A stretch of 64,000 bases of DNA from Rhodospirillaceae bacterium (GTDB lineage: Bacteria; Pseudomonadota; Alphaproteobacteria; MPNO01; UBA2964): the NCBI GenBank assembly GCA_002709075.1, contig PAPV01000019.1, forward strand, positions 1 through 64,000, in the 5' to 3' direction. The first letter of the stretch is position 1. Every line of letters starts with the position of its first letter. A program made the position numbers and the translations under genes. The notes beneath the pieces are model-generated. The model worked only from the letters and a program-made list of their open reading frames with translations, was not told the DNA's origin and did not search any database. Below are positions 2 through 10,407 of this stretch, piece by piece.

Positions 2-889
2 ATAGCGTGGTTGATTGGATTTTCTACTTTTATTTTTGGAAATGAGGAATGGGCTGTAAGACTTTTTTCACCCATAACACACTTATTTATTTCTTTAGTT
101 TTATGGGGAACCGCAAAATTTGCATTTGGATCAAACTCTGGAAAAATTGCAGCTTTAATTTGGATATTTACACCCGCAGCATCCTTGGGTGGATTTATAA
201 TTTCAACTGATACTCCACTATTATTATTTTGGTCTTTATCTTTATTTTTTTTATTCATATCATTAAGACAAAATTCTAGCTTTTCATCTTTATTTGTAGG
301 TATTTTTCTAGGTCTTGCATTTTTATCCAAATATGCAGCTTTGTATTTTTTAATTTTCTTCATTATATGGTGGATAATTTACGACCGAAGTACATTTTTA
401 AGTATTAAAAATATAATAATAATACTTTTTACAAGTTTCTTGATAGCAAGCACAAATTTATATTGGAATTACTTAAATGATTTTGTAACGGTAAGTCACA
501 CAATTTCAAATGCAGATCTTTCAGCAATAACTCTCAACTATAAAAATGTGATTGATTTTTTGTCTTCTCAATTTTTAGTGTTTGGGCCTTTATTATTTTT
601 ATTATATCTTTTAATAATAATAGATAGCTTATTTAAGAACAGAGATATAACTCTTTTATCAATGATTTCTTTTCCTATAATTATTTTAATTACAGTTCAA
701 AGTTTTTTAAAAATTGCAAATGCTAACTGGGCAGTTACTGCTTACGTAGGCGCGACTTTAATCATAAGTTACTACGCAACCTTGACAAGAAATTGCGAAT
801 GTTTTTTTATAGTTAATGATCTTTCTTGCATAACAGACGACCGAACTTTGATATGCGGTTCGGTCGTCTACTTACCGTTGCGTTGTTAA
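2..889 (+). pseudogene. Glycosyltransferase family 39 (ArnT/PMT-like) membrane protein; 5' end off window, 3' end truncated
   Basis: Frame open to window edge; 'NEEWAVRLFSPITHLF', 'STDTPLLLFWSLSLFF', 'ANWAVTAYVGATLIISYY' are GT39-like; homology-like sequence ends near nt ~775 and is followed by an unrelated short tail; very AT-rich. Confidence 0.6.
836..868. repeat. Perfect inverted repeat GACGACCGAAC-(11 nt)-GTTCGGTCGTC
   Basis: Read directly; lies between convergent ORFs 11..889(+) and 886..1260(-); no T-tract. Confidence 0.8.
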
Positions 890-1260
890 AGTCTTTTTCC
901 AAAGTTTTTTAAAGGCTGATAATCTTTTAGTTGGCAAACGTTATCTCCTCCAACCGGTCTCCACCCCATATCCTCAAGACCATCGTGATCAGGATGATCA
1001 AAGATTTTCCATTCCTTCAATTTGTCTAATAGGACTGCCGAACGGAAGCGCTCCAATTCGCGTACATGCAAGCCTTGATAATAATTGAAACTCCACCACT
1101 CATTGGCATGACGCTTAAAATAAATATGTTGTTTAGCTTTACATTCCGGCGGGCCCCAATATCGAATACCGGCAGGAAAAACCCGTTGTCTTGGGATTTT
1201 TCGTTTTGGCGGTCGTTTTTTTCTTGGTGGAAATTTTAAAATATCAGCGACCATATCCAT
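886..1260 (-). CDS. Hypothetical protein (124 aa, basic N-terminus)
   Basis: ORF with coherent composition, on the outer mobile element. Confidence 0.55.
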   Translation of the reverse strand: MDMVADILKFPPRKKRPPKRKIPRQRVFPAGIRYWGPPECKAKQHIYFKRHANEWWSFNYYQGLHVRELERFRSAVLLDKLKEWKIFDHPDHDGLEDMGWRPVGGDNVCQLKDYQPLKNFGKRL

Positions 1261-1305
1261 CCTCCCTTCTCAGGTTGAAGGCGTAAGGTTGTATATCGAT
1301 CGGTG

Positions 1306-1323
1306 TTCTCAACTTTGAGAACG
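1306..1323. promoter_or_regulatory. Operator-like palindrome GTTCTCAA-CT-TTGAGAAC
   Basis: 8-bp perfect arms in the intergenic region upstream of the 886..1260 gene. Confidence 0.5.
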
Positions 1324-1397
1324 CGATTTTCATGCGAGGCATATTAGGTGCTCCTCTCTTTAGTGCTTTAGGCCCAATGCCACGGCGCACAAGCTGA

Positions 1398-1709
1398 AGT
1401 TCAAATGCCGAACCTGTTAAGGTAGGTCAGTCCAATAAAAAAGCCGCCACAGCCAAGCTGGGCGACCCCAACGCTTTAGCTGTATTTCTAAATCGCCCGC
1501 AAGCTGAATTCAAATCGGCGAATTTCTTTCCTAATATTTTACCGGATGAAATCAATATTATCAACAATATGTTTGCTGAAGGTAAAAAAATGAGTAGTCT
1601 TTTTTTAAGAATGATCACTGAAACTTGGATTGTAACCCATGGAAAAGTTCACAGTAACAGCCAAGTTAAAAACGCCAATCATATTTGGAGGCGGTTACTG
1701 TACGCTTGA
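1398..1709 (+). pseudogene. Open frame without start codon upstream of the RAMP gene; possible frameshifted gene beginning at ATG 1333
   Basis: Frame reads SSNAEPVKVGQSNKKAATAKLGDPNALAVFLNRPQAEFKSANFFPNILPDEINIINNMFAEGKKMSSLFLRMI...; ATG-initiated frame 1333..1425 (MRGILGAPLFSALGPMHGAQAEVQ...) is offset by -1 and overlaps it. Confidence 0.3.
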
Positions 1710-2136
1710 TGCGGTGCTCGGTTCCATCCTATTCGAGGAACTGGGAGACGTTGAGGCGGCCCATTCAGCAATCCCATTGCGCTGCACTGATGGGCTTTTT
1801 CACGCTAGTGCGGCGATCATGGAGCCGTTTTATTCCCGCCCGGTGACTTTCGTCGCGAACCTACGAGCAGATCATACTGTCAATCCAGCTCTGCTACAAA
1901 AGAATAAAGCGGGTAACGTTCACAGACGGATGGGGAAAAAAAGGAGGCAAGACTTCGGTGCTGTTTTGAATAAATATTCGTTATATAGTGCTGAAGATGT
2001 CGTGTGGTATGCGGAAGGTGATCGGGAACGCGCGCAAGAACTTCTGACCCCAATAGCTTTTATTGGTAAAAGACGGGGAAGCGGATTTGGAGAGGTAAAG
2101 ATTAAAAAAATAGCCACAGTCACACCCGTACCTTAA
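1639..2136 (+). CDS. RAMP-superfamily protein, Csf3/Cas5/Cas6-like (orphan)
   Basis: N-terminal 'FTVTAKLKTPIIFGGGYCTLDAVLGSILFEE', 'IPLRCTDGLFHASAAI' and a C-terminal glycine-rich loop 'FIGKRRGSGFGEV' as in RAMP proteins; no other cas genes in the window. Confidence 0.55.
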   Translation: MEKFTVTAKLKTPIIFGGGYCTLDAVLGSILFEELGDVEAAHSAIPLRCTDGLFHASAAIMEPFYSRPVTFVANLRADHTVNPALLQKNKAGNVHRRMGKKRRQDFGAVLNKYSLYSAEDVVWYAEGDRERAQELLTPIAFIGKRRGSGFGEVKIKKIATVTPVP

Positions 2137-2160
2137 CGGTACGGGTGTGTGACTATGTGG
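2114..2160. repeat. Long inverted repeat; perfect core CACACCCGTACC-TTAAC-GGTACGGGTGTG (2121..2149)
   Basis: Read directly; 12-bp perfect stem with 5-nt loop containing the RAMP stop codon, extended imperfectly by CCACAGT/TGACTATGTGG. Confidence 0.85.
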
Positions 2161-2185
2161 TGTTAACCTCAATGAAAGGGACGGT

Positions 2186-3991
2186 TCACACAATTGGCCC
2201 CAGAAGGTAACCGTTTTTATCTTTAATTATGTGTTTGTTTTCGACACCGCGGCTTAAAGCCATTTTAACAGCGGAGTCTGTGACAGGGCTGAGGTCGTTC
2301 TCTTTTGAGTATTCTACCACGCAATTAATGATTTCTTTTTGCGATAAAGGCGCTCGATCTCGAAGGATCGCTTTGATACGCTCACCTGCCGGCACTTTTT
2401 GATTGGCCGGGACGGGCACCAATTCGCCCTCAATCTCGCCTGTCAGTTCGTGGGTAACTTCTGTATTTTGAAGTTGAAACTCTAAACTCAAGCTGTCATC
2501 ACCATCTTTCTGTTTTTCCACCGAGACTGTGACAAATCGACTTTCACCTTGTCGCTTTACAAGAAGCATTGTGTCCACGTTTGCTTTAAGTGCAGATGCA
2601 CCTCGAGCACCCCGCGATTGGTCTTTACCAGTATGGGCTACGATCAGCACAAAACACTGCCAAAGGGTCGATAAGTTGTAGGCAATCTCGATGGCAGCTG
2701 CCATCTCGCTATTACTATTTTCATCAATCCCCGGGGTGGCTTTAGATAATGTATCGATAATGACAAGCTCAAACCGCTCTGCGTTAGTTTCCAGCCATTC
2801 GATGTCACTTAAATTTGCGAGAGTGATGCCTTCCCATAACCCAACACCAGTTTGATCTAAATCATAGTAATTTGCTGTAGCAACAAGCCTCCGCCCCATT
2901 CCGCGTCGTCCTTCATGAGCGGTATAAAGTGAACGCCCGAGCTTGGATGAGACACCAGGGTAAAATTCAGCCCCATTGGCGATACACAAAGCGAGGTAGC
3001 CACAGATATAGGATTTAAATGACCCACTGGCTCCACTGATAATCCCAACTCCCACTTCGGGAATGAGGTCTTTGACAAGCCAACTAATTGGCTCAGCAAG
3101 GTACACCTCACGGGGCGTTTCTATAGGACGCCTCTTTGTGTCTCGCTCTTTGGCCTTTTTGGCAAATTTTTGAAGAGCGCTGTCGATCAGATTAGCGAGC
3201 TCTTTATCCGTTTGTTCAATAGTGTAGCCCGATTGGCGAAAGGGCCTGAATAAATGCATCATTTCGCCTTGGGTTAACCCGAGGTTGGCGTAGGATGCCG
3301 CGAGGTCTCGGAGGGGATTATGCCAAGCCTCTCCGCGGATCAGTTGCTCGAGGCGAATTTCATTTTTTGTTAATGGAAGTCCTGAATGCTGTGGTTGATT
3401 GATTGGGAGATCTTCTGAGGAACGACTTGGCAGTGCGCCAGCGCGAGATTGCATAATCCGTTCCCCTTGTTGCAAAAACTCTGTAAGCGCCTGCTCTGAG
3501 ACCAAGGGTAATTGATCGGCGGAAAAATCCAGGAGTTCATCATTGGGCCATTCGTACTCTGATCCCGTCTCAGGATGGATACCGTAGGCAATAAATTGTT
3601 GCCCCTCTCCAAGAATCTCGATGGCACATTCCTGCCCCTCAATGAAGAAGGTGTTACTCTGCCTTTTTTTTAATGCGGAAGGAGCGCGAAACACATACAA
3701 AAATTTTGGCGTTGCCCCAATTCTTTTAGGAGCGGGTCCAAGAAGATCAATCAGGAGCCTTTCAATCTCGGCTGAGGTCGCGGGGTCTCGGACATCAATA
3801 TCGATAGCAATAATGTTTTGAGCTCCGCCACAGAGAACGCCCGTATTCGCTTTAGAAAATTTATCAAAATTTTTTGCCTCATTGGGACGGGTATTCCAAG
3901 CACGAAGGGTAGGGCGTTTTCCGTTCGTTGGCGTGACATCAAAACCTTTTTCAACCAGCAGGGGGGCTTTTTCTTTGTAACTGTTAGACAT
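2186..3991 (-). CDS. Bifunctional primase/polymerase (prim-pol) + RepA-like AAA_25 helicase replication protein
   Basis: N-terminal 'NTGVLCGGAQNIIAIDIDVRDP' prim-pol-like; Walker A 'GIISGASGSFKSY'; 'ELVIIDTLSKATPGIDENSN'; 'VLIVAHTGKDQSRGARGASALKANVDTMLLV'. Confidence 0.85.
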   Translation of the reverse strand: MSNSYKEKAPLLVEKGFDVTPTNGKRPTLRAWNTRPNEAKNFDKFSKANTGVLCGGAQNIIAIDIDVRDPATSAEIERLLIDLLGPAPKRIGATPKFLYVFRAPSALKKRQSNTFFIEGQECAIEILGEGQQFIAYGIHPETGSEYEWPNDELLDFSADQLPLVSEQALTEFLQQGERIMQSRAGALPSRSSEDLPINQPQHSGLPLTKNEIRLEQLIRGEAWHNPLRDLAASYANLGLTQGEMMHLFRPFRQSGYTIEQTDKELANLIDSALQKFAKKAKERDTKRRPIETPREVYLAEPISWLVKDLIPEVGVGIISGASGSFKSYICGYLALCIANGAEFYPGVSSKLGRSLYTAHEGRRGMGRRLVATANYYDLDQTGVGLWEGITLANLSDIEWLETNAERFELVIIDTLSKATPGIDENSNSEMAAAIEIAYNLSTLWQCFVLIVAHTGKDQSRGARGASALKANVDTMLLVKRQGESRFVTVSVEKQKDGDDSLSLEFQLQNTEVTHELTGEIEGELVPVPANQKVPAGERIKAILRDRAPLSQKEIINCVVEYSKENDLSPVTDSAVKMALSRGVENKHIIKDKNGYLLGPIV

Positions 3992-3995
3992 TATG

Positions 3996-4304
3996 CTACT
4001 CTCCCGTCTGCCCGGAGATTACCGGCATATAGAAGTACCCAGTCTTTAAATGTGAAGGGGGGGCTGACAGAAAGGCCAGGGCCTCAACGAAAAGGTCCTC
4101 TCTGTTGAACAGCCCAAACTCTGCAACTGCGACGGCCAAGGCTTGTTTATTGGAAGTAATGAAACGCATTGCCTTGACTTTTGGCATCGGCGAAAGCGTA
4201 ACTTTCTGACACAAAACCCATTGCAGCTCATCAGCTCCAATGAACCAATCAGGGGTGATGTCGAGTTGAAAGTTTAAGAGTGATGCTGATATAAATGACT
4301 TCAT
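3996..4304 (-). CDS. Hypothetical protein
   Basis: 102-aa ORF immediately upstream of the replication gene, same strand. Confidence 0.5.
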   Translation of the reverse strand: MKSFISASLLNFQLDITPDWFIGADELQWVLCQKVTLSPMPKVKAMRFITSNKQALAVAVAEFGLFNREDLFVEALAFLSAPPSHLKTGYFYMPVISGQTGE

Positions 4305-4436
4305 AAAGGAGCCCTCCTTTGTTAAAAGTGAGCTCTTATTTATTACGACAAGACCTACTAGCTCCAGAATCGTCAGTCCGAGAAACGGATCAGAAAATCA
4401 TCTAAGTATATGAAATAACTGTGTAAAATAGATTAA

Positions 4437-4880
4437 TTATTCCACGGCACCGGACGTTCTGGATCTTAAAACAAACTCGTCATAATCCTTGCAAATTCTT
4501 GAGATTGTTATTTCACTAGCTTTGAAACTTCTTCCAGTAAGTTCCCGCGATATTGTCTGAATAATTTGGCGTTTGGAAAAAACACCTTTTTTCTCATAAA
4601 ATTTTTTATGGTGCACGCCTGCTAGTCTGAGCCGTTTTTTGTGTGCGGCGATTGCAGCAATTTTATCTATGCCATTCCCTCTGTCCGCACTGATCCTATC
4701 AAGGGACTCTTGAATTACTCGGGCATACTTACTCCCTGAAAAAATTCTTCTCTTGGCATCTTTCTTGGCCGACTCCCGAGCTATTTCGCTGACCTTGATC
4801 CCAATAAGCAAGCGATCCATTCTAGATAGCCTTTTTAGCCCACTGTTCGGTTTTCGAACTTTCGGTCCGGGTTTTACCAT
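4437..4880 (-). CDS. Hypothetical protein (basic, 147 aa)
   Basis: ORF between integrase 3' half and replication genes, same strand. Confidence 0.55.
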   Translation of the reverse strand: MVKPGPKVRKPNSGLKRLSRMDRLLIGIKVSEIARESAKKDAKRRIFSGSKYARVIQESLDRISADRGNGIDKIAAIAAHKKRLRLAGVHHKKFYEKKGVFSKRQIIQTISRELTGRSFKASEITISRICKDYDEFVLRSRTSGAVE

Positions 4881-4943: not shown

Positions 4944-5227
4944 TCAGCGAAGTTTTTTAGCAAGATCTTCTGCTCTAAGATGTGTGTAGCGTTGTAACAT
5001 TCTGAGATCTTTGTGACCTGTAATAGAGGCTACCTCCATCACATTAAGTCCTTTTTCAAAGAACCTTGATGTTGCCTCGTGTCTTAGGTCATGAAAGTGA
5101 AGATCTTCTATTTGTTGTTTTTGAATTAATCTTTTCCAGCAGCTCTGTAATGCGGCTGGTTTTATGGGGAAGACAAAGCCAGAGATGTCTCTTGGCAGGG
5201 TGTTGAGTATTTCTAATGCTTTAGGAG
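4944..5227 (-). pseudogene. Outer-element tyrosine integrase, C-terminal half (interrupted gene)
   Basis: Minus-strand reading PKALEILNTLPRDISGFVFPIKPAALQSCWKRLIQKQQIEDLHFHDLRHEATSRFFEKGLNVMEVASITGHKDLRMLQRYTHLRAEDLAKKLR*; catalytic HxxR and Y motifs; absent from the ORF track because it lacks a start. Confidence 0.9.
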
Positions 5228-5245
5228 GGCAGCGCTCTATCCAGC
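5224..5245 (-). other. Partial tRNA-Arg(CCG) sequence (D-loop to anticodon), left attachment junction
   Basis: Minus strand GCTGGATAGAGCGCTGCCCTCC. Confidence 0.8.
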
Positions 5246-5310
5246 AATATATTGAAAACGCTTAGTTTTTCACAGATTGTTCTATCTGAATTAGTATATC
5301 TGAATAGTCT

Positions 5311-5331
5311 ACTGTGTCAAATCTGTGTCAA
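5311..5331 (+). repeat. 21-bp direct repeat ACTGTGTCAAATCTGTGTCAA, copy 1
   Basis: Identical to 9384..9404; itself contains TGTGTCAA twice. Confidence 0.9.
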
Positions 5332-5341
5332 TTATTGGTTT

Positions 5342-6574
5342 CTATTTTTTCACTGAGTTAAGAAAATGAAGTAAAGAGGTTGCAACTGCGTGACCAAGAT
5401 TAACCGGAACAGCGTTGCCTATCTGTTTATATTGACTTGAGAGACTACCCTCAAAATCCCAAGTGTCAGGAAAGGTTTGAATACGCGCATATTCTCTCAC
5501 GGTTAGAGGTCTTGTTTCGGTTGGATGGCAACGTTCCGTTTGCTTTTGTGCAGGTGCGCATGTGAGTGTAAGACTTGGTTCATCCCAAGATAAACGTCTT
5601 GCCATCCCTGTCTTTCCTCCGCCCAAATGATAACTGCCTTTCATGTATTCGCTCTGAAGTTTGTCGGGTAAATCTCTCCAATACCCGCCTTCTGGCACTT
5701 GTTGCATTATATTTGCCTTACTTTTGGGGTAATTTTGTCCTCCAGATATTGGAACGTCAGAATTATATAACTCGCCAGATTTCAAAGCGTCATTAAGAGT
5801 AAAAATTTTTGGATATTTTTTGGGCCAAAAAAATTCCTCTTCAGTTGCTAAATCCTTTTTTACAGCAACTAAAAATAGTCGTTCTCTTTTTTGCGGAACC
5901 CTGTAAAAAATTGCTTTGAGAATTTTGGGTTCAATAAGTTTATACCCAAGTTCATCTATAATATTTTTAATTGTTTGAAGCGTTCGCCCAGAGTCATGCG
6001 CCGATAATCCACGAACATTTTCTGCAAGAATTACTCTTGGTTGAATTTGCTTGATTGCTCGAGCAAATTCAAAAAATAGTGTCCCCCTTATATCTTCAAA
6101 CCCTAGTTTTTTACCGGCATATGAGAATGCTTGGCAGGGAAACCCACCCGAAAGCAAATCGACTTTCCCTGAGAAATCCCCAAAATCTATATTCCTGATA
6201 TCATCATTAATGACGTTCCAGTTTGGTCTATTTTTTCGAAGGGTTAAACATGCATCTTTATCAATTTCGTTATGGAGTAGTGTCTGAAAACCTGCCATTT
6301 CTAACCCAAGTGCTAACCCTCCAGCGCCAGCAAAAAGTTCCAGTGCAGTGTGGGTTTTCGTGCATTGTTCGATATTTTCTAGATATCCAAGTTTTGTCTC
6401 TCTAAAAAATTCTAACTCTGGAAATCGTCCATATAGTTCATCCAACTCAAAGTATTCAAGTCCTGTAATCTTATCTATTTTTGGGTTTAACAAACCCTTT
6501 TTGACCCTTTGCTCTATGTTTCTTTTTGACACGCCAAGGATGTCTGCAAGTATCTGTTTTGAGAGTGATGTCAT
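5342..6574 (-). CDS. DNA (cytosine-5) methyltransferase with N-terminal HTH-like domain
   Basis: 'ALELFAGAGGLALGLEMAGF', 'GGFPCQAFSYAGKK', 'AENVRG', 'QKRERLFLV', 'QIGNAVPVNLG'; N-terminus 'SKQILADILGVSKRNIEQRVKKGLL'. Confidence 0.95.
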   Translation of the reverse strand: MTSLSKQILADILGVSKRNIEQRVKKGLLNPKIDKITGLEYFELDELYGRFPELEFFRETKLGYLENIEQCTKTHTALELFAGAGGLALGLEMAGFQTLLHNEIDKDACLTLRKNRPNWNVINDDIRNIDFGDFSGKVDLLSGGFPCQAFSYAGKKLGFEDIRGTLFFEFARAIKQIQPRVILAENVRGLSAHDSGRTLQTIKNIIDELGYKLIEPKILKAIFYRVPQKRERLFLVAVKKDLATEEEFFWPKKYPKIFTLNDALKSGELYNSDVPISGGQNYPKSKANIMQQVPEGGYWRDLPDKLQSEYMKGSYHLGGGKTGMARRLSWDEPSLTLTCAPAQKQTERCHPTETRPLTVREYARIQTFPDTWDFEGSLSSQYKQIGNAVPVNLGHAVATSLLHFLNSVKK

Positions 6575-6576
6575 GA

Positions 6577-6589
6577 CAGAAATTTTCTG
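6577..6589. promoter_or_regulatory. Candidate operator CAGAAA-T-TTTCTG in the divergent methyltransferase/endonuclease promoter region
   Basis: 13-nt palindrome directly upstream of the methyltransferase start, between divergent R and M genes. Confidence 0.4.
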
Positions 6590-6651
6590 AAAATAATTTT
6601 GCTGTGTTTTCTTGCCATGCTAACATTCTTATCGGGGTAGAGGAAATACAT

Positions 6652-7386
6652 ATGGAAAATAACGATAGAATTCTTAACCTAGCAGGCAAATGGTTTGTTA
6701 AAACGGTAGTTGCCAGTCATATAAAAAATACAAAAAAATTAATTAGTTATAAAGAATTTAATGTTAATCCTTTTCTAACTCCGTATTTGTCTGTGTTTCT
6801 AAAAGGCGAGTTATCAGAAAGAGGTGTCGCTGAGGCGCTTGTCTTGCCGAGGGCGCTTCAGACTTCTATCGCAACATCATTCGGAACACATATGCAGCAC
6901 TTTATTTCTGAGGTTCTATCAGATGCTTATCCAAGTGTTGTCTCGGGTCTTGATATTGAGTTTGACGACCAATTGGATGGGCGAAAAAAATATTCTCAGG
7001 TAAAGTCAGGCCCTAACACAATTAACGCAGATGATGTTGAAACTATCCATAACCATTTCAACTCCATCAGACAACTTGCCAAGACTAATCGTTTATCCAT
7101 TCAATTAAATGACCTTGTGGTTGGTGTTATTTATGGCAATGAGAGAGAATTGAGTCCGCATTACAAAATACTTCGGGACAAATATAACTATACGGTAGAG
7201 GTGGGAAAGGATTTTTGGGTCAGGGTTACTGGAGATGAACTATTCTTTGAAAAACTAATAGGTGTAATTGTTGAAGAAACAAAATCTCTGGATGTTGAAA
7301 ATATACTTGAGGAAGTGATCGAGGGCCTATCAAAAACCCCCGAAATCAAGTTACTTGTTAACAATCTTAAAATTTCAAAAATCTAA
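6652..7386 (+). CDS. Type II restriction endonuclease, EcoO109I/PmeII-like
   Basis: 'NVNPFLTPYLSVFL', 'GLDIEFDDQLDGRKKYSQVKSGPNTIN', 'DLVVGVIYGNERELSPHYKILRD', 'VGKDFWVRVTGD'; divergent from the methyltransferase; start 6652 preferred over 6604. Confidence 0.75.
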   Translation: MENNDRILNLAGKWFVKTVVASHIKNTKKLISYKEFNVNPFLTPYLSVFLKGELSERGVAEALVLPRALQTSIATSFGTHMQHFISEVLSDAYPSVVSGLDIEFDDQLDGRKKYSQVKSGPNTINADDVETIHNHFNSIRQLAKTNRLSIQLNDLVVGVIYGNERELSPHYKILRDKYNYTVEVGKDFWVRVTGDELFFEKLIGVIVEETKSLDVENILEEVIEGLSKTPEIKLLVNNLKISKI

Positions 7387-7566
7387 TTCTTATAAATAAT
7401 TCCATATCAGTTTCAGTGAGCATGCAAACCCATTGAGAAACAGTAACTCTGGTTCGGAACTTGGTTAGGCATCAAATTTAGATTATGACGCACCAAAGTT
7501 GGATATGGGTGCATAAAGATTTCCAATAGGACAAGGGAGAAATAACCCTTAAGTGATACAGGTAAT

Positions 7567-7827
7567 CATCCAGTCGGTTCTGTTTCACTGCCGTAGTTTT
7601 AGTAGAGTGTAAAGGGATATCGGATTACCCACCCTGCCTATTCGATTAGGTTACTCTGACTGGATGTGTTGACGGACGCAGACGCAGATTTGTTTTCTAG
7701 ACATGCTTTCCCTGTGGAGGGGTTAGTGTGTCTAGAACGCACCGCAGATTAAATATTCTAAAGATTGTTAATTTACATCTAGAGACCATGCATCTTCGGT
7801 GCATTCATCCACCAACGGTGGATGAAT
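7567..7827. ncRNA. Candidate structured non-coding region with several inverted repeats
   Basis: CATCCAGTC(7567-7575)/GACTGGATG(7658-7666); TTCTAGACA(7695-7703)/TGTCTAGAA(7729-7737); ATGCA(7788-7792)/TGCAT(7800-7804); ATTCATCCACC(7803-7813)/GGTGGATGAAT(7817-7827). Confidence 0.4.
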
Positions 7828-8217
7828 TGGTTAACTAAATTTCACCTAAATAGTTCTATGAAAGACATGGTAGAACTAACAAGACTTTTTCTAAATGAGA
7901 CACCAGACAGTGACGATTTAGAACTCTTGAATGAATTCATCGGACTGAGAACTGGTGCAATCGTGATGGGATTAGGAAAAGTTAAACAATATGCAACAAG
8001 ACTAGACCAAGAGATTAATTCACTCAGAGCAGACTTATCAGACCTCAGAAAATCTTCACCAGAAGATGGCCCTCGGAAACTTGCTGATGCATTAGAAACG
8101 ATGGGGAAAATTTTCTGGTTACAAAGAAAGATGGGAATGTATACCGCACTAACTGCTGCCGCGACTGGTGTGGGTGTAGAGAAAACAAATAAGTTACTCA
8201 AGAAACGCGGGAAGTAG
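7822..8217 (+). CDS. Hypothetical protein (annotated start lies inside a perfect hairpin; internal ATG 7858 possible)
   Basis: 131-aa ORF with hydrophilic helical composition. Confidence 0.55.
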   Translation: MNWLTKFHLNSSMKDMVELTRLFLNETPDSDDLELLNEFIGLRTGAIVMGLGKVKQYATRLDQEINSLRADLSDLRKSSPEDGPRKLADALETMGKIFWLQRKMGMYTALTAAATGVGVEKTNKLLKKRGK

Positions 8218-8379
8218 AGGTGCGACTCCTTCATTTGCGGAAAAGAAAACGGAAGATGCATTTTAATAGCGTTCCTTTGTGTTCTAAATCAGGTATCTAT
8301 GGTTTCGTAAAATATTGTTTTCCCTGAATCAAAACTGGGACACCCAGGCAATCTATAAATGCATTTAAGACACCTCTAT

Positions 8380-9369
8380 TCATAGAGAAAAGGCAGCATA
8401 TTTTTTGAATACATTTTCTGGATTGAGGTGGGTGTATCTGAACAACTGTCTTACATCTTTATGTCCAGATATGAGTGCCACTTCTGGCACTGACATTCCC
8501 ATCTCAAAGAACCTTGAGACTGCTTCATGTCTTAAGTCATGAAATCGTAAATCGGTAATACCTGCTTTTTTGCGTGCTCTGTTCCATGCAAGACGGAGAC
8601 AAGTGGCAGAGATAGGAAAGACTCTCTCATCGGTTTGAGGCCCTCTCTGAAGAATTGCTGTGCACCTTCTAGTTAGGGGCACTCGTCTATCTTCCTCATT
8701 CTTCGTGTCAAAAAGAGATGCAAAACCATTATCTAAGTCAACATCACACCATCTGAGTTTCAGCATCTCAGAACGACGCATACCAGTTTCAATTGCAAAC
8801 TCAATTATGGAACAGATATAGATATTGCGTTGAGATGATGCGGCAACGAGGAGGCGTTCTTTTTCGTCACCGATAAGACGCCTCGTTCTCGCTTTAGAAC
8901 CCTTTGGAAACTGAATATCTTTGATTGGGTTGTAGGGTATCCCATATCCCCATTTCTTAATTGCGGTATCCAGAACTCTTTTTATGAGTGCGAGTTCTGA
9001 ACCAACACTCCCACCTTTCACAACTTTTAACCTGTCATCACGATATTGGATGAAGTGTTGTTTGGTTAGATAGCGAATATCTAACTCACCAATCCATCTC
9101 TTAGCGATGGATTTCAATCGACAGGTTTCAGGCCCACAACCTTTGTGATTAGGAGAAATTTCTTCTGCATATTTGAGAAGGAGTTCTTTCAGCGTAACTT
9201 TGGTTTCAATGATTAAATCTGGAACAGGGGCAGATTTGAGTTTGTGTTCAAGTTCATTGACCCAAACAACAGCATCAGACTTCTTAGAGAATGATTTGGT
9301 GAAACTTCTCCATCCAGCAATCCTCACCTGAGCATTCCAAGACTTACCTCTTTTACGCACACAACCCAT
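8380..9369 (-). CDS. Tyrosine recombinase/integrase of the inner element
   Basis: 'ETGMRRSEMLKLRW', 'LRFHDLRHEAVSRFFEMGMSVPEVALISGHKDVRQLFRYTHL'. Confidence 0.95.
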   Translation of the reverse strand: MGCVRKRGKSWNAQVRIAGWRSFTKSFSKKSDAVVWVNELEHKLKSAPVPDLIIETKVTLKELLLKYAEEISPNHKGCGPETCRLKSIAKRWIGELDIRYLTKQHFIQYRDDRLKVVKGGSVGSELALIKRVLDTAIKKWGYGIPYNPIKDIQFPKGSKARTRRLIGDEKERLLVAASSQRNIYICSIIEFAIETGMRRSEMLKLRWCDVDLDNGFASLFDTKNEEDRRVPLTRRCTAILQRGPQTDERVFPISATCLRLAWNRARKKAGITDLRFHDLRHEAVSRFFEMGMSVPEVALISGHKDVRQLFRYTHLNPENVFKKYAAFSL

Positions 9370-9383
9370 TGATTTGACCTTTC

Positions 9384-9404
9384 ACTGTGTCAAATCTGTG
9401 TCAA
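9384..9404 (+). repeat. 21-bp direct repeat ACTGTGTCAAATCTGTGTCAA, copy 2
   Basis: Identical to 5311..5331. Confidence 0.9.
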
Positions 9405-9473
9405 AACTGAAGTTTTTTGATAACAGACTGAAATCAAAAAAATCGTAAATATATGAATATATTAAAAGATTTA

Positions 9474-9518
9474 TGGCGCACTCGAGAGGATTCGAACCTC
9501 TGACCTCTGCCTTCGGAG
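9474..9518 (-). other. Partial tRNA-Arg(CCG), anticodon to CCA end, right attachment junction
   Basis: Minus strand CTCCGAAGGCAGAGGTCAGAGGTTCGAATCCTCTCGAGTGCGCCA. Confidence 0.9.
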
Positions 9519-10215
9519 AAAGAGGCACATTTCTTGTGGCTCCATTCTTAGTCTCCGGCAAATGAACATATTTCTTCTCCAGAAACACATACTGCCATTG
9601 GAGTTTTAGCAGCTCCCCTCTTCTCATGGCGGTCTCAATGGCAAACAGCATGAGAGGTTTGGTCCATATATTTGTTATTTGGTTCAGACCATGAAGGAGT
9701 TTTTCTTCTTCGCCTTCCTCTAACCTTCTATTTCTAGAACTACTAGGAGGTGGCTTTCTGATCTTAGACACAGGATTACAGGTTAGCTCATAACCCCAAT
9801 CTTGCATCGCTACGGTAAAGATATGAGACAACAACGTCAGCTCACGCAGAACGGTAGAAGGTTGAACCAGTTCCAATCGGTTATCGCGATACTGAGCAAT
9901 ATGAGATTGTGTAATGTTGTGAATGGGAAGTTCAGATAGGAATGATTGCTTCAAACCTTTTAATCTAAATTTTTCTATCTCGTGTGACTTTTTATCTACC
10001 GAGACGGTTTTCTCGTAGCGATTGATAATATCCAGAAATAGATATGAAGATTGGGGTATTAATCCATTTTCTAAATCGATCTCTGTCTGTCTAGACCATC
10101 TCAGCGCATCTTCTCTTCTGCCGAAGCTTTTACAGAGTGTTCTTGAGCCCTTCCGTCTGACCCTTACGTAGTAGCGACCTAGCTTCTTTGTAATACTCGC
10201 CATAATCTTTTTCAC
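9519..10215 (-). pseudogene. Outer-element tyrosine integrase, N-terminal half (interrupted gene)
   Basis: Reads ...ETAMRRGELLKLQWQYVFLEKKYVHLPETKNGATRNVPLSP, then enters tRNA-Arg sequence; 697 nt + 284 nt (4944..5227) = 981 nt, a multiple of 3. Confidence 0.9.
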
Positions 10216-10330
10216 TCCCCTAATGGAGCAGGAATGGAGAAAAAAAGAAAAACGACAAACGTGCCGATGACCGCCAGAATTATCTCTAAACGTAAATATC
10301 TGACAACATTGCAGCTTTCGGAACGATTTA

Positions 10331-10407
10331 TGGTCGGAGTGAGAGGATTTGAACCTCCGGCCCCTGCCTCCCGAAGACAGTGCTCTACCAGGCTGAGCTA
10401 CACTCCG
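10331..10407 (-). tRNA. tRNA-Pro(CGG)
   Basis: Minus strand CGGAGTGTAGCTCAGCCTGGTAGAGCACTGTCTTCGGGAGGCAGGGGCCGGAGGTTCAAATCCTCTCACTCCGACCA; anticodon loop TTCGGGA. Confidence 0.95.

What the first reader, a model, noticed from the sequence alone, without database searches (positions are those of the whole stretch)
5224..9518. The inner element's attP contains a tRNA-Arg(CCG) segment split in the anticodon loop; insertion used a degenerate secondary site
Joining the two ends gives GCTGGATAGAGCGCTGCCCTCCGAAGGCAGAGGTCAGAGGTTCGAATCCTCTCGAGTGCGCCA, i.e. tRNA-Arg(CCG) from the D-loop to CCA. The anticodon stems CTGCC/GGCAG flank the 7-nt loop CTCCGAA, matching a tyrosine-recombinase core (inverted arms around a short overlap). 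The target in the integrase gene was CTCCTAAAGCA versus CTCCGAAGGCA in the element (9/11 identical). This suggests off-target site-specific integration rather than illegitimate recombination.
Basis: partly seen in the sequence, partly recalled or inferred. Interest (0 to 1): 0.75.

Follow-up and report, generated by a model that had tools for sequence, protein, structure and literature searches.

The report
Mobile element inserted off its tRNA target
A small mobile DNA island carrying a restriction-modification defence normally inserts into a particular transfer-RNA gene, but this marine bacterium appears to have lost that gene, and the island has instead landed inside the integrase gene of another mobile element, at a site that resembles its usual target by only a few bases.

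Summary
Removing a 4,291-bp insert (5224/5228 to 9514/9518) restores an intact 322-aa outer integrase gene. Joining the insert's ends gives an attP holding tRNA-Arg(CCG) from the D-loop to CCA, opened in the anticodon loop. The interpretation also holds. Thirteen of 13 related integrases with a readable upstream flank sit directly downstream of a tRNA-Arg gene (or, in a tandem array, a tRNA-Arg att copy). The closest (83% identity) follows a tRNA-Arg(CCG) identical to the reconstructed segment over all 63 nt. Relatives with both ends visible show the same attP layout: an arm-site repeat about 85 bp before the D-loop segment and another 67-69 bp after CCA. The host, 99.9% complete, has no detectable tRNA-Arg(CCG) gene. 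At its conserved polA/ABC-transporter locus the tRNA is missing, although 25 of 27 genomes of the order match the query. This is therefore secondary-site integration by a tRNA-Arg tyrosine integrase in a host without the primary attB, as seen in the laboratory for ICEBs1 and SGI1. One correction: the 9/11 target match is common by chance. Only the 7-bp overlap (6/7) and the place where the circle opened are informative. New member of a known kind, unusually clean natural example.

The parts
5224..9518 (-). Inner integrative element, 4,291 bp, bounded by a 4-bp direct repeat GGAG (5224-5227 and 9515-9518) that belongs to the recombination overlap
   Evidence: removal restores the outer integrase ORF
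5224..5245 (-). Distal end: attP left half, tRNA-Arg(CCG) D-loop to anticodon stem GCTGGATAGAGCGCTGCC, running into the target overlap CTCCTAA
9474..9518 (-). Int-side end: attP right half, tRNA-Arg(CCG) positions 33-77 (CTCCGAAGGCAG...GTGCGCCA)
   Evidence: 100% over 33-77
5311..5331 (-). P-arm integrase-binding repeat TTGACACAGATTTGACACAGT, arm start about 86 bp before the D-loop segment
9384..9404 (-). P'-arm integrase-binding repeat, identical 21 bp, 69 bp after CCA
8380..9369 (-). Inner tyrosine integrase, 329 aa, R-K-HxxR-H-Y catalytic set present; clusters with relatives found at tRNA-Arg(CCG)
5342..6574 (-). C5-cytosine DNA methyltransferase, 410 aa
   Evidence: PF00145 3.5e-85; PADLOC type II MTase 5.8e-112
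6652..7386 (+). EcoO109I-family type II restriction endonuclease, 244 aa
   Evidence: PF14511 1.1e-27
7822..8217 (+). 131-aa ORF, function unknown
   Evidence: no hit in Pfam, PADLOC or PHROGs
9519..10203 (-). Outer integrase gene, N-terminal part (before the HxxR box), truncated by the insertion
4955..5227 (-). Outer integrase gene, C-terminal part with HxxR-H-Y (low end approximate)
   Evidence: joined ORF of 322 aa
10331..10407 (-). tRNA-Pro(CGG), directly upstream of the outer integrase (presumed attachment site of the outer element)

Best explanation
The insert is a small integrative restriction-modification island whose tyrosine integrase normally recombines its attP with the anticodon loop of tRNA-Arg(CCG), rebuilding the tRNA from the element's own copy of the 3' half. 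This host lineage appears to have lost tRNA-Arg(CCG). The incoming circle therefore recombined at a secondary site inside the integrase gene of a resident element. That site shares six of the seven overlap bases with attP (CTCCTAA against CTCCGAA) and little else. Each junction kept a different version of the overlap, as expected when a mismatched overlap heteroduplex is resolved by replication. The resident element's integrase is cut before its catalytic C-terminus, so that element is probably immobilised, and the inner island probably excises poorly. Shown by sequence: element ends, attP content, arm sites, primary site in relatives, absence of that site in the host assembly, restored outer ORF. 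Inferred: that the integrase is active, the causal role of attB loss, and the excision defect.
For: All 13 SAR116-cluster relatives of the integrase (60-83% identity) with a readable upstream flank lie about 100 bp downstream of tRNA-Arg (CCG, ACG or TCG); one of them lies downstream of a truncated tRNA-Arg(ACG) att copy in a tandem array. The closest sits at a tRNA-Arg(CCG) identical to the reconstructed segment (L070), and the tree groups the inner integrase with the CCG users (support 93/98). Relatives with both ends visible (L074, L083, L084, L081) have the same attP: arm repeat about 83-90 bp before the D-loop segment and another 67-69 bp after CCA. The arm repeat occurs only twice in the whole host genome, at the two ends of this element. 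Remnants left by other elements at tRNA-Arg(CCG) in five genomes of the order begin at tRNA position 32 or 33, the start of the anticodon loop. tRNA-Arg(CCG) is absent from the host by BLAST and by pattern, and is missing from its conserved polA/ABC-ATPase locus, which lies inside a 408-kb contig. Removing the insert restores a full 322-aa integrase. Precedents: ICEBs1 without its tRNA-Leu attB (17 bp, 5-7-5; secondary sites with up to 12 mismatches; ends carrying different crossover sequences) in PMC3715440, and SGI1 without thdF in PMC2297512.
Against: The host assembly is in 26 contigs and its tRNA list is visibly incomplete (no Trp, for example), so a relocated tRNA-Arg(CCG) in an assembly gap cannot be fully excluded. 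The target's arms match attP poorly (3/10), so nothing in sequence alone explains why this site was chosen. There are no reads or circular-junction data showing activity. Only one such insertion is known, so a general rule cannot be drawn.
Confidence: 0.88

Rival explanations
1. The element is an embedded satellite whose regular target is the integrase gene of other mobile elements, in the way helper-embedded PICIs target prophage late genes.
For: It sits inside a mobile element's gene, and helper-embedded satellites that target phage genes exist (PMC10111431).
Against: All 13 relatives with a readable flank sit at tRNA-Arg, none in an integrase gene. The attP carries tRNA-Arg sequence, not integrase-gene sequence, so insertion destroys rather than restores the target ORF.
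Confidence: 0.03
2. Illegitimate or microhomology-mediated insertion of a circular molecule at a 4-bp CTCC match, without the integrase.
For: The junctions share only 4 bp, and the surrounding target similarity is at chance level.
Against: The circle opened inside the 7-nt anticodon loop flanked by 5-bp inverted arms. A random opening there has a chance of about 7/4291, or 0.2%. There is no deletion or duplication, both arm sites are intact, and the integrase is intact.
Confidence: 0.06
3. Assembly chimera between the outer element and an inner element that is really located at a tRNA-Arg gene elsewhere in the genome.
For: It is a draft genome, and elements at tRNA genes often break contigs.
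Against: Two independent mis-joins would have to be reciprocal, exact to the base, and leave a perfectly restorable ORF. The host has no tRNA-Arg(CCG) 5' half that could be the true neighbour.
Confidence: 0.03

Closest known systems
ICEBs1 of Bacillus subtilis in hosts lacking attB in trnS-leu2 (Menard and Grossman 2013, PMC3715440)
   Same: A tRNA-targeting element with a 17-bp core of 5-bp inverted arms and a 7-bp crossover; integration into degenerate sites in protein genes when the primary site is absent; left and right ends carry different overlap sequences.
   Different: ICEBs1 is a conjugative element and the attB deletion was made in the laboratory. Here a small R-M island did this in nature after apparent gene loss. 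ICEBs1 cores and integrase were not compared by sequence here.
Salmonella genomic island 1 at its secondary attachment site (PMC2297512)
   Same: Loss of the primary attB leads to use of a secondary site; tandem arrays also occur (compare L077 here).
   Different: The primary target is thdF/trmE, not a tRNA; the secondary site is one preferred intergenic site.
Mycobacteriophage Fionnbharth secondary integration (tRNA-dependent lysogeny, PMC10865867)
   Same: Tyrosine integrase with a core at the 3' half of a tRNA; secondary attB sites lie in non-essential protein genes and share only a few overlap bases.
   Different: The Fionnbharth attP shares only about 10 bp with the tRNA and the phage carries a separate tRNA gene. 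Here the attP rebuilds the tRNA and carries 63 nt of it.
tRNA-targeted integrative islands carrying type II restriction-modification systems
   Same: int next to the tRNA 3' half, arm-type sites, R-M cargo (L084 at tRNA-Arg(ACG) carries a homologous EcoO109I-like pair: MTase 66%, REase 49% identity).
   Different: This copy is not at a tRNA; in this family the attP extends 5' of the crossover to the D-loop.

Membership tests
tRNA-Arg-targeting tyrosine-integrase islands of the SAR116 cluster (the family defined here) | Integrase over 60% identical to family members with complete R-K-HxxR-H-Y catalytic set | tested here: met
tRNA-Arg-targeting tyrosine-integrase islands of the SAR116 cluster (the family defined here) | attP with tRNA-Arg segment from D-loop to CCA flanked by paired TTGACACAG arm repeats at fixed distances | tested here: met
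tRNA-Arg-targeting tyrosine-integrase islands of the SAR116 cluster (the family defined here) | Integrated at a tRNA-Arg gene that is rebuilt on integration | tested here: not met
   This copy is inside the outer integrase gene; no tRNA is rebuilt. It is related by integrase and attP, but sits at a non-standard site.
Secondary-site integration after loss of primary attB | Primary attB absent or occupied in the host | tested here: met
   No tRNA-Arg(CCG) in G000; missing at the syntenic locus; a draft-assembly gap is not fully excluded
Secondary-site integration after loss of primary attB | Junctions map inside the overlap, with partial overlap identity to attP | tested here: met
   CTCCTAA against CTCCGAA, 6/7; each end retains a different version
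Secondary-site integration after loss of primary attB | Integrase-dependent; excision reduced from the secondary site | not testable with these tools
   needs experiment
Type II restriction-modification system, EcoO109I-like | REase of PF14511 next to a C5-cytosine methyltransferase | tested here: met
Type II restriction-modification system, EcoO109I-like | Recognition of RGGNCCY | not testable with these tools
   specificity not assayed
Helper-embedded satellite (HE-PICI) | Recurrent insertion at the same gene of a helper element | tested here: not met
   all 13 relatives with a readable flank at tRNA-Arg

The most novel reading that the evidence does not exclude
Loss of a dispensable tRNA gene acts as a natural attB deletion. 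In this host, two elements whose closest relatives use tRNA-Arg(CCG) are found elsewhere: the inner island at a poorly matching secondary site, and the outer element at tRNA-Pro(CGG), whose anticodon arm matches the Arg(CCG) core at 13/17 positions. This would make tRNA loss a driver of retargeting and of elements inactivating each other.
Probability: 0.2. Interest if true: 0.55.

Novelty: new member of a known kind. Interest (0 to 1): 0.42.

Why it matters
Secondary-site integration has mostly been studied in laboratory strains with an engineered attB deletion. Here an apparent natural attB loss and its consequence can be read in one genome, with close relatives showing the intact primary site. 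The mismatched target also pins the family's strand exchange to the first four bases of the anticodon loop, which identical att repeats in normal insertions cannot reveal.

Tried and rejected
Integrase relatives in IMG/VR were all distant (24-26% identity), so nothing ties the element to a phage. The 9/11 target similarity was tested against shuffles and rejected as evidence. The EcoO109I-like enzyme has no PDB hit by phmmer. A second tRNA-Pro(CGG) copy on C20 was considered as the outer element's distal end, but the DNA beside it carries ordinary metabolic genes, so the outer element's far boundary stays unresolved. L076, L086 and L087 were set aside as rearranged or fragmentary integrase loci; L073 and L080 begin at contig ends.

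Full report
What is there. On the minus strand an outer integrase gene begins at 10203, next to tRNA-Pro(CGG) (10331-10407), and is interrupted after codon 229 or so. It resumes at 5227. Between the halves lie 4,291 bp bounded by the four bases CTCC (GGAG on the + strand, 5224-5227 and 9515-9518). Removing the insert gives an uninterrupted 322-aa integrase, 287/322 identical to an uninterrupted integrase in a genome of the same genus (L068). The insert carries its own tyrosine integrase (329 aa), a 131-aa ORF without matches, an EcoO109I-family endonuclease and a C5-cytosine methyltransferase.

The attP. The joined ends read GCTGGATAGAGCGCTGCC-CTCCGAA-GGCAGAGGTCAGAGGTTCGAATCCTCTCGAGTGCGCCA. 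Integrase relatives were fetched from a collection of 84,980 species genomes. In 13 of 13 with a readable upstream flank, the integrase starts about 100 bp after tRNA-Arg: CCG in L070, L071, L072; TCG in L083; ACG in the others, including L077, where the preceding copy is a truncated ACG att copy in a tandem array. The closest, L070 (83% identity, a Candidatus Puniceispirillum MAG), follows a tRNA-Arg(CCG) that contains the 63-nt segment without a mismatch. A tree groups the inner integrase with the CCG users (93/98), and its catalytic residues are all present.

Architecture. A 21-bp sequence, TTGACACAGATTTGACACAGT, occurs perfectly at 5311-5331 and 9384-9404 and nowhere else in the host genome even with three mismatches. 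In relatives with both ends in view (L074, L083, L084, L081) the same arm repeat, or a close variant, lies 83-90 bp before the distal tRNA copy, and another lies 67-68 bp after CCA; in the inner element the distances are 86 and 69. In these relatives the distal copy starts in or near the D-loop (positions 12-20), so carrying the tRNA from D-loop to CCA is a trait of the family. I interpret the repeats as arm-type integrase sites by analogy with lambda; this was not tested biochemically.

Where strands are exchanged. In normal insertions the two tRNA copies are identical and hide the crossover. Here the target differs, and the switch lies in CTCC, the first four bases of the anticodon loop. The int-side junction carries attP's CTCCGAA and the distal junction the target's CTCCTAA. 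That is what Menard and Grossman describe for ICEBs1 at secondary sites: mismatched overlaps resolved by replication leave ends with different crossover sequences (PMC3715440). Independently, remnants left by other elements at tRNA-Arg(CCG) in five genomes of the order begin at position 32 or 33, at the loop's first base.

Why it landed here. The host (G000; 2.52 Mb, 99.89% complete) gives no tRNA-Arg(CCG) by BLAST of the segment, by BLAST of the full gene or by pattern, and none among the tRNAs listed. That tRNA list is incomplete, so it is weak evidence alone. With the full-gene query, 25 of 27 genomes of the order had a match, and many of these are full-length tRNA-Arg(CCG) genes at 91-97% identity. 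The gene's neighbourhood is conserved: polA, an ABC-transporter ATPase, then the tRNA. In the host, polA and the ABC ATPase are found on the 408-kb contig C4, and the tRNA is gone, with type I restriction genes (hsdM, hsdS-like) nearby. tRNA-Arg(TCG) is present and could read CGG by wobble (general knowledge). The primary attB is thus very probably lost.

How good is the target? It matches attP at 6 of 7 overlap bases, 0 of 5 left-arm and 3 of 5 right-arm bases. The similarity therefore does not prove site-specific recombination. The opening of the circle inside the loop (about 7 in 4,291 by chance), the untouched arms and the clean restorable target do. Eight mismatches of 17 fall within the range reported for ICEBs1 secondary sites, where the site with eight mismatches gave no detectable excision (PMC3715440). 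I predict poor excision here.

Consequences. The outer integrase loses its catalytic HxxR-H-Y part, so the outer element is probably immobilised unless helped in trans. The inner island keeps its attP and integrase and could return to tRNA-Arg(CCG) if it reached another cell.

Verdict. Observation confirmed and interpretation supported, with the statistical caveat. The novelty is moderate: a clean natural case of a known laboratory phenomenon, within a small family of tRNA-Arg islands that did not turn up in the papers searched.

Noticed in passing
window 9519-10407; L068:7729-8893: The outer integrase (89% identical over 322 aa) sits at tRNA-Pro(CGG) here but its relative in the congener sits at tRNA-Arg(CCG). 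The Pro(CGG) anticodon arm matches the Arg(CCG) core at 13/17 positions (14/17 in reverse complement), suggesting a target switch.
   Followed up: partly
L132:7045-7121 (G000 C20:111544-111620): A second tRNA-Pro(CGG) copy, identical to the window's copy except at its first few bases, which breaks the acceptor stem; it looks like an att remnant.
   Followed up: partly
L003:1495-1545 (G000 C8): The 3' half of a tRNA with a CTTTTAA loop (Lys-like), broken in the anticodon stem region: apparently the remnant of another anticodon-loop integration in this host.
   Followed up: no
L077:2778-10984: Tandem array at tRNA-Arg(ACG): three att copies and two different family integrases.
   Followed up: partly
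L084:3921-10183: Complete relative at tRNA-Arg(ACG) with a homologous EcoO109I-like R-M pair and a gene weakly matching REP_ORF2-G2P, below its curated cut-off.
   Followed up: partly
L074, L081, L083, L084 P-side: The attP segment 5' of the crossover (D-loop to anticodon stem) follows the tRNA type targeted, which integration alone does not require; how it is kept in step is unexplained.
   Followed up: no
L131:4598-7146 (G000 C4): Type I restriction genes (hsdM, hsdS-like) near the place where tRNA-Arg(CCG) is expected from synteny.
   Followed up: no
window 886-4880: Outer element with a Prim-Pol/AAA replication protein and small ORFs also seen beside the congener's integrase; its left boundary was not found (contig starts at window base 1).
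   Followed up: partly
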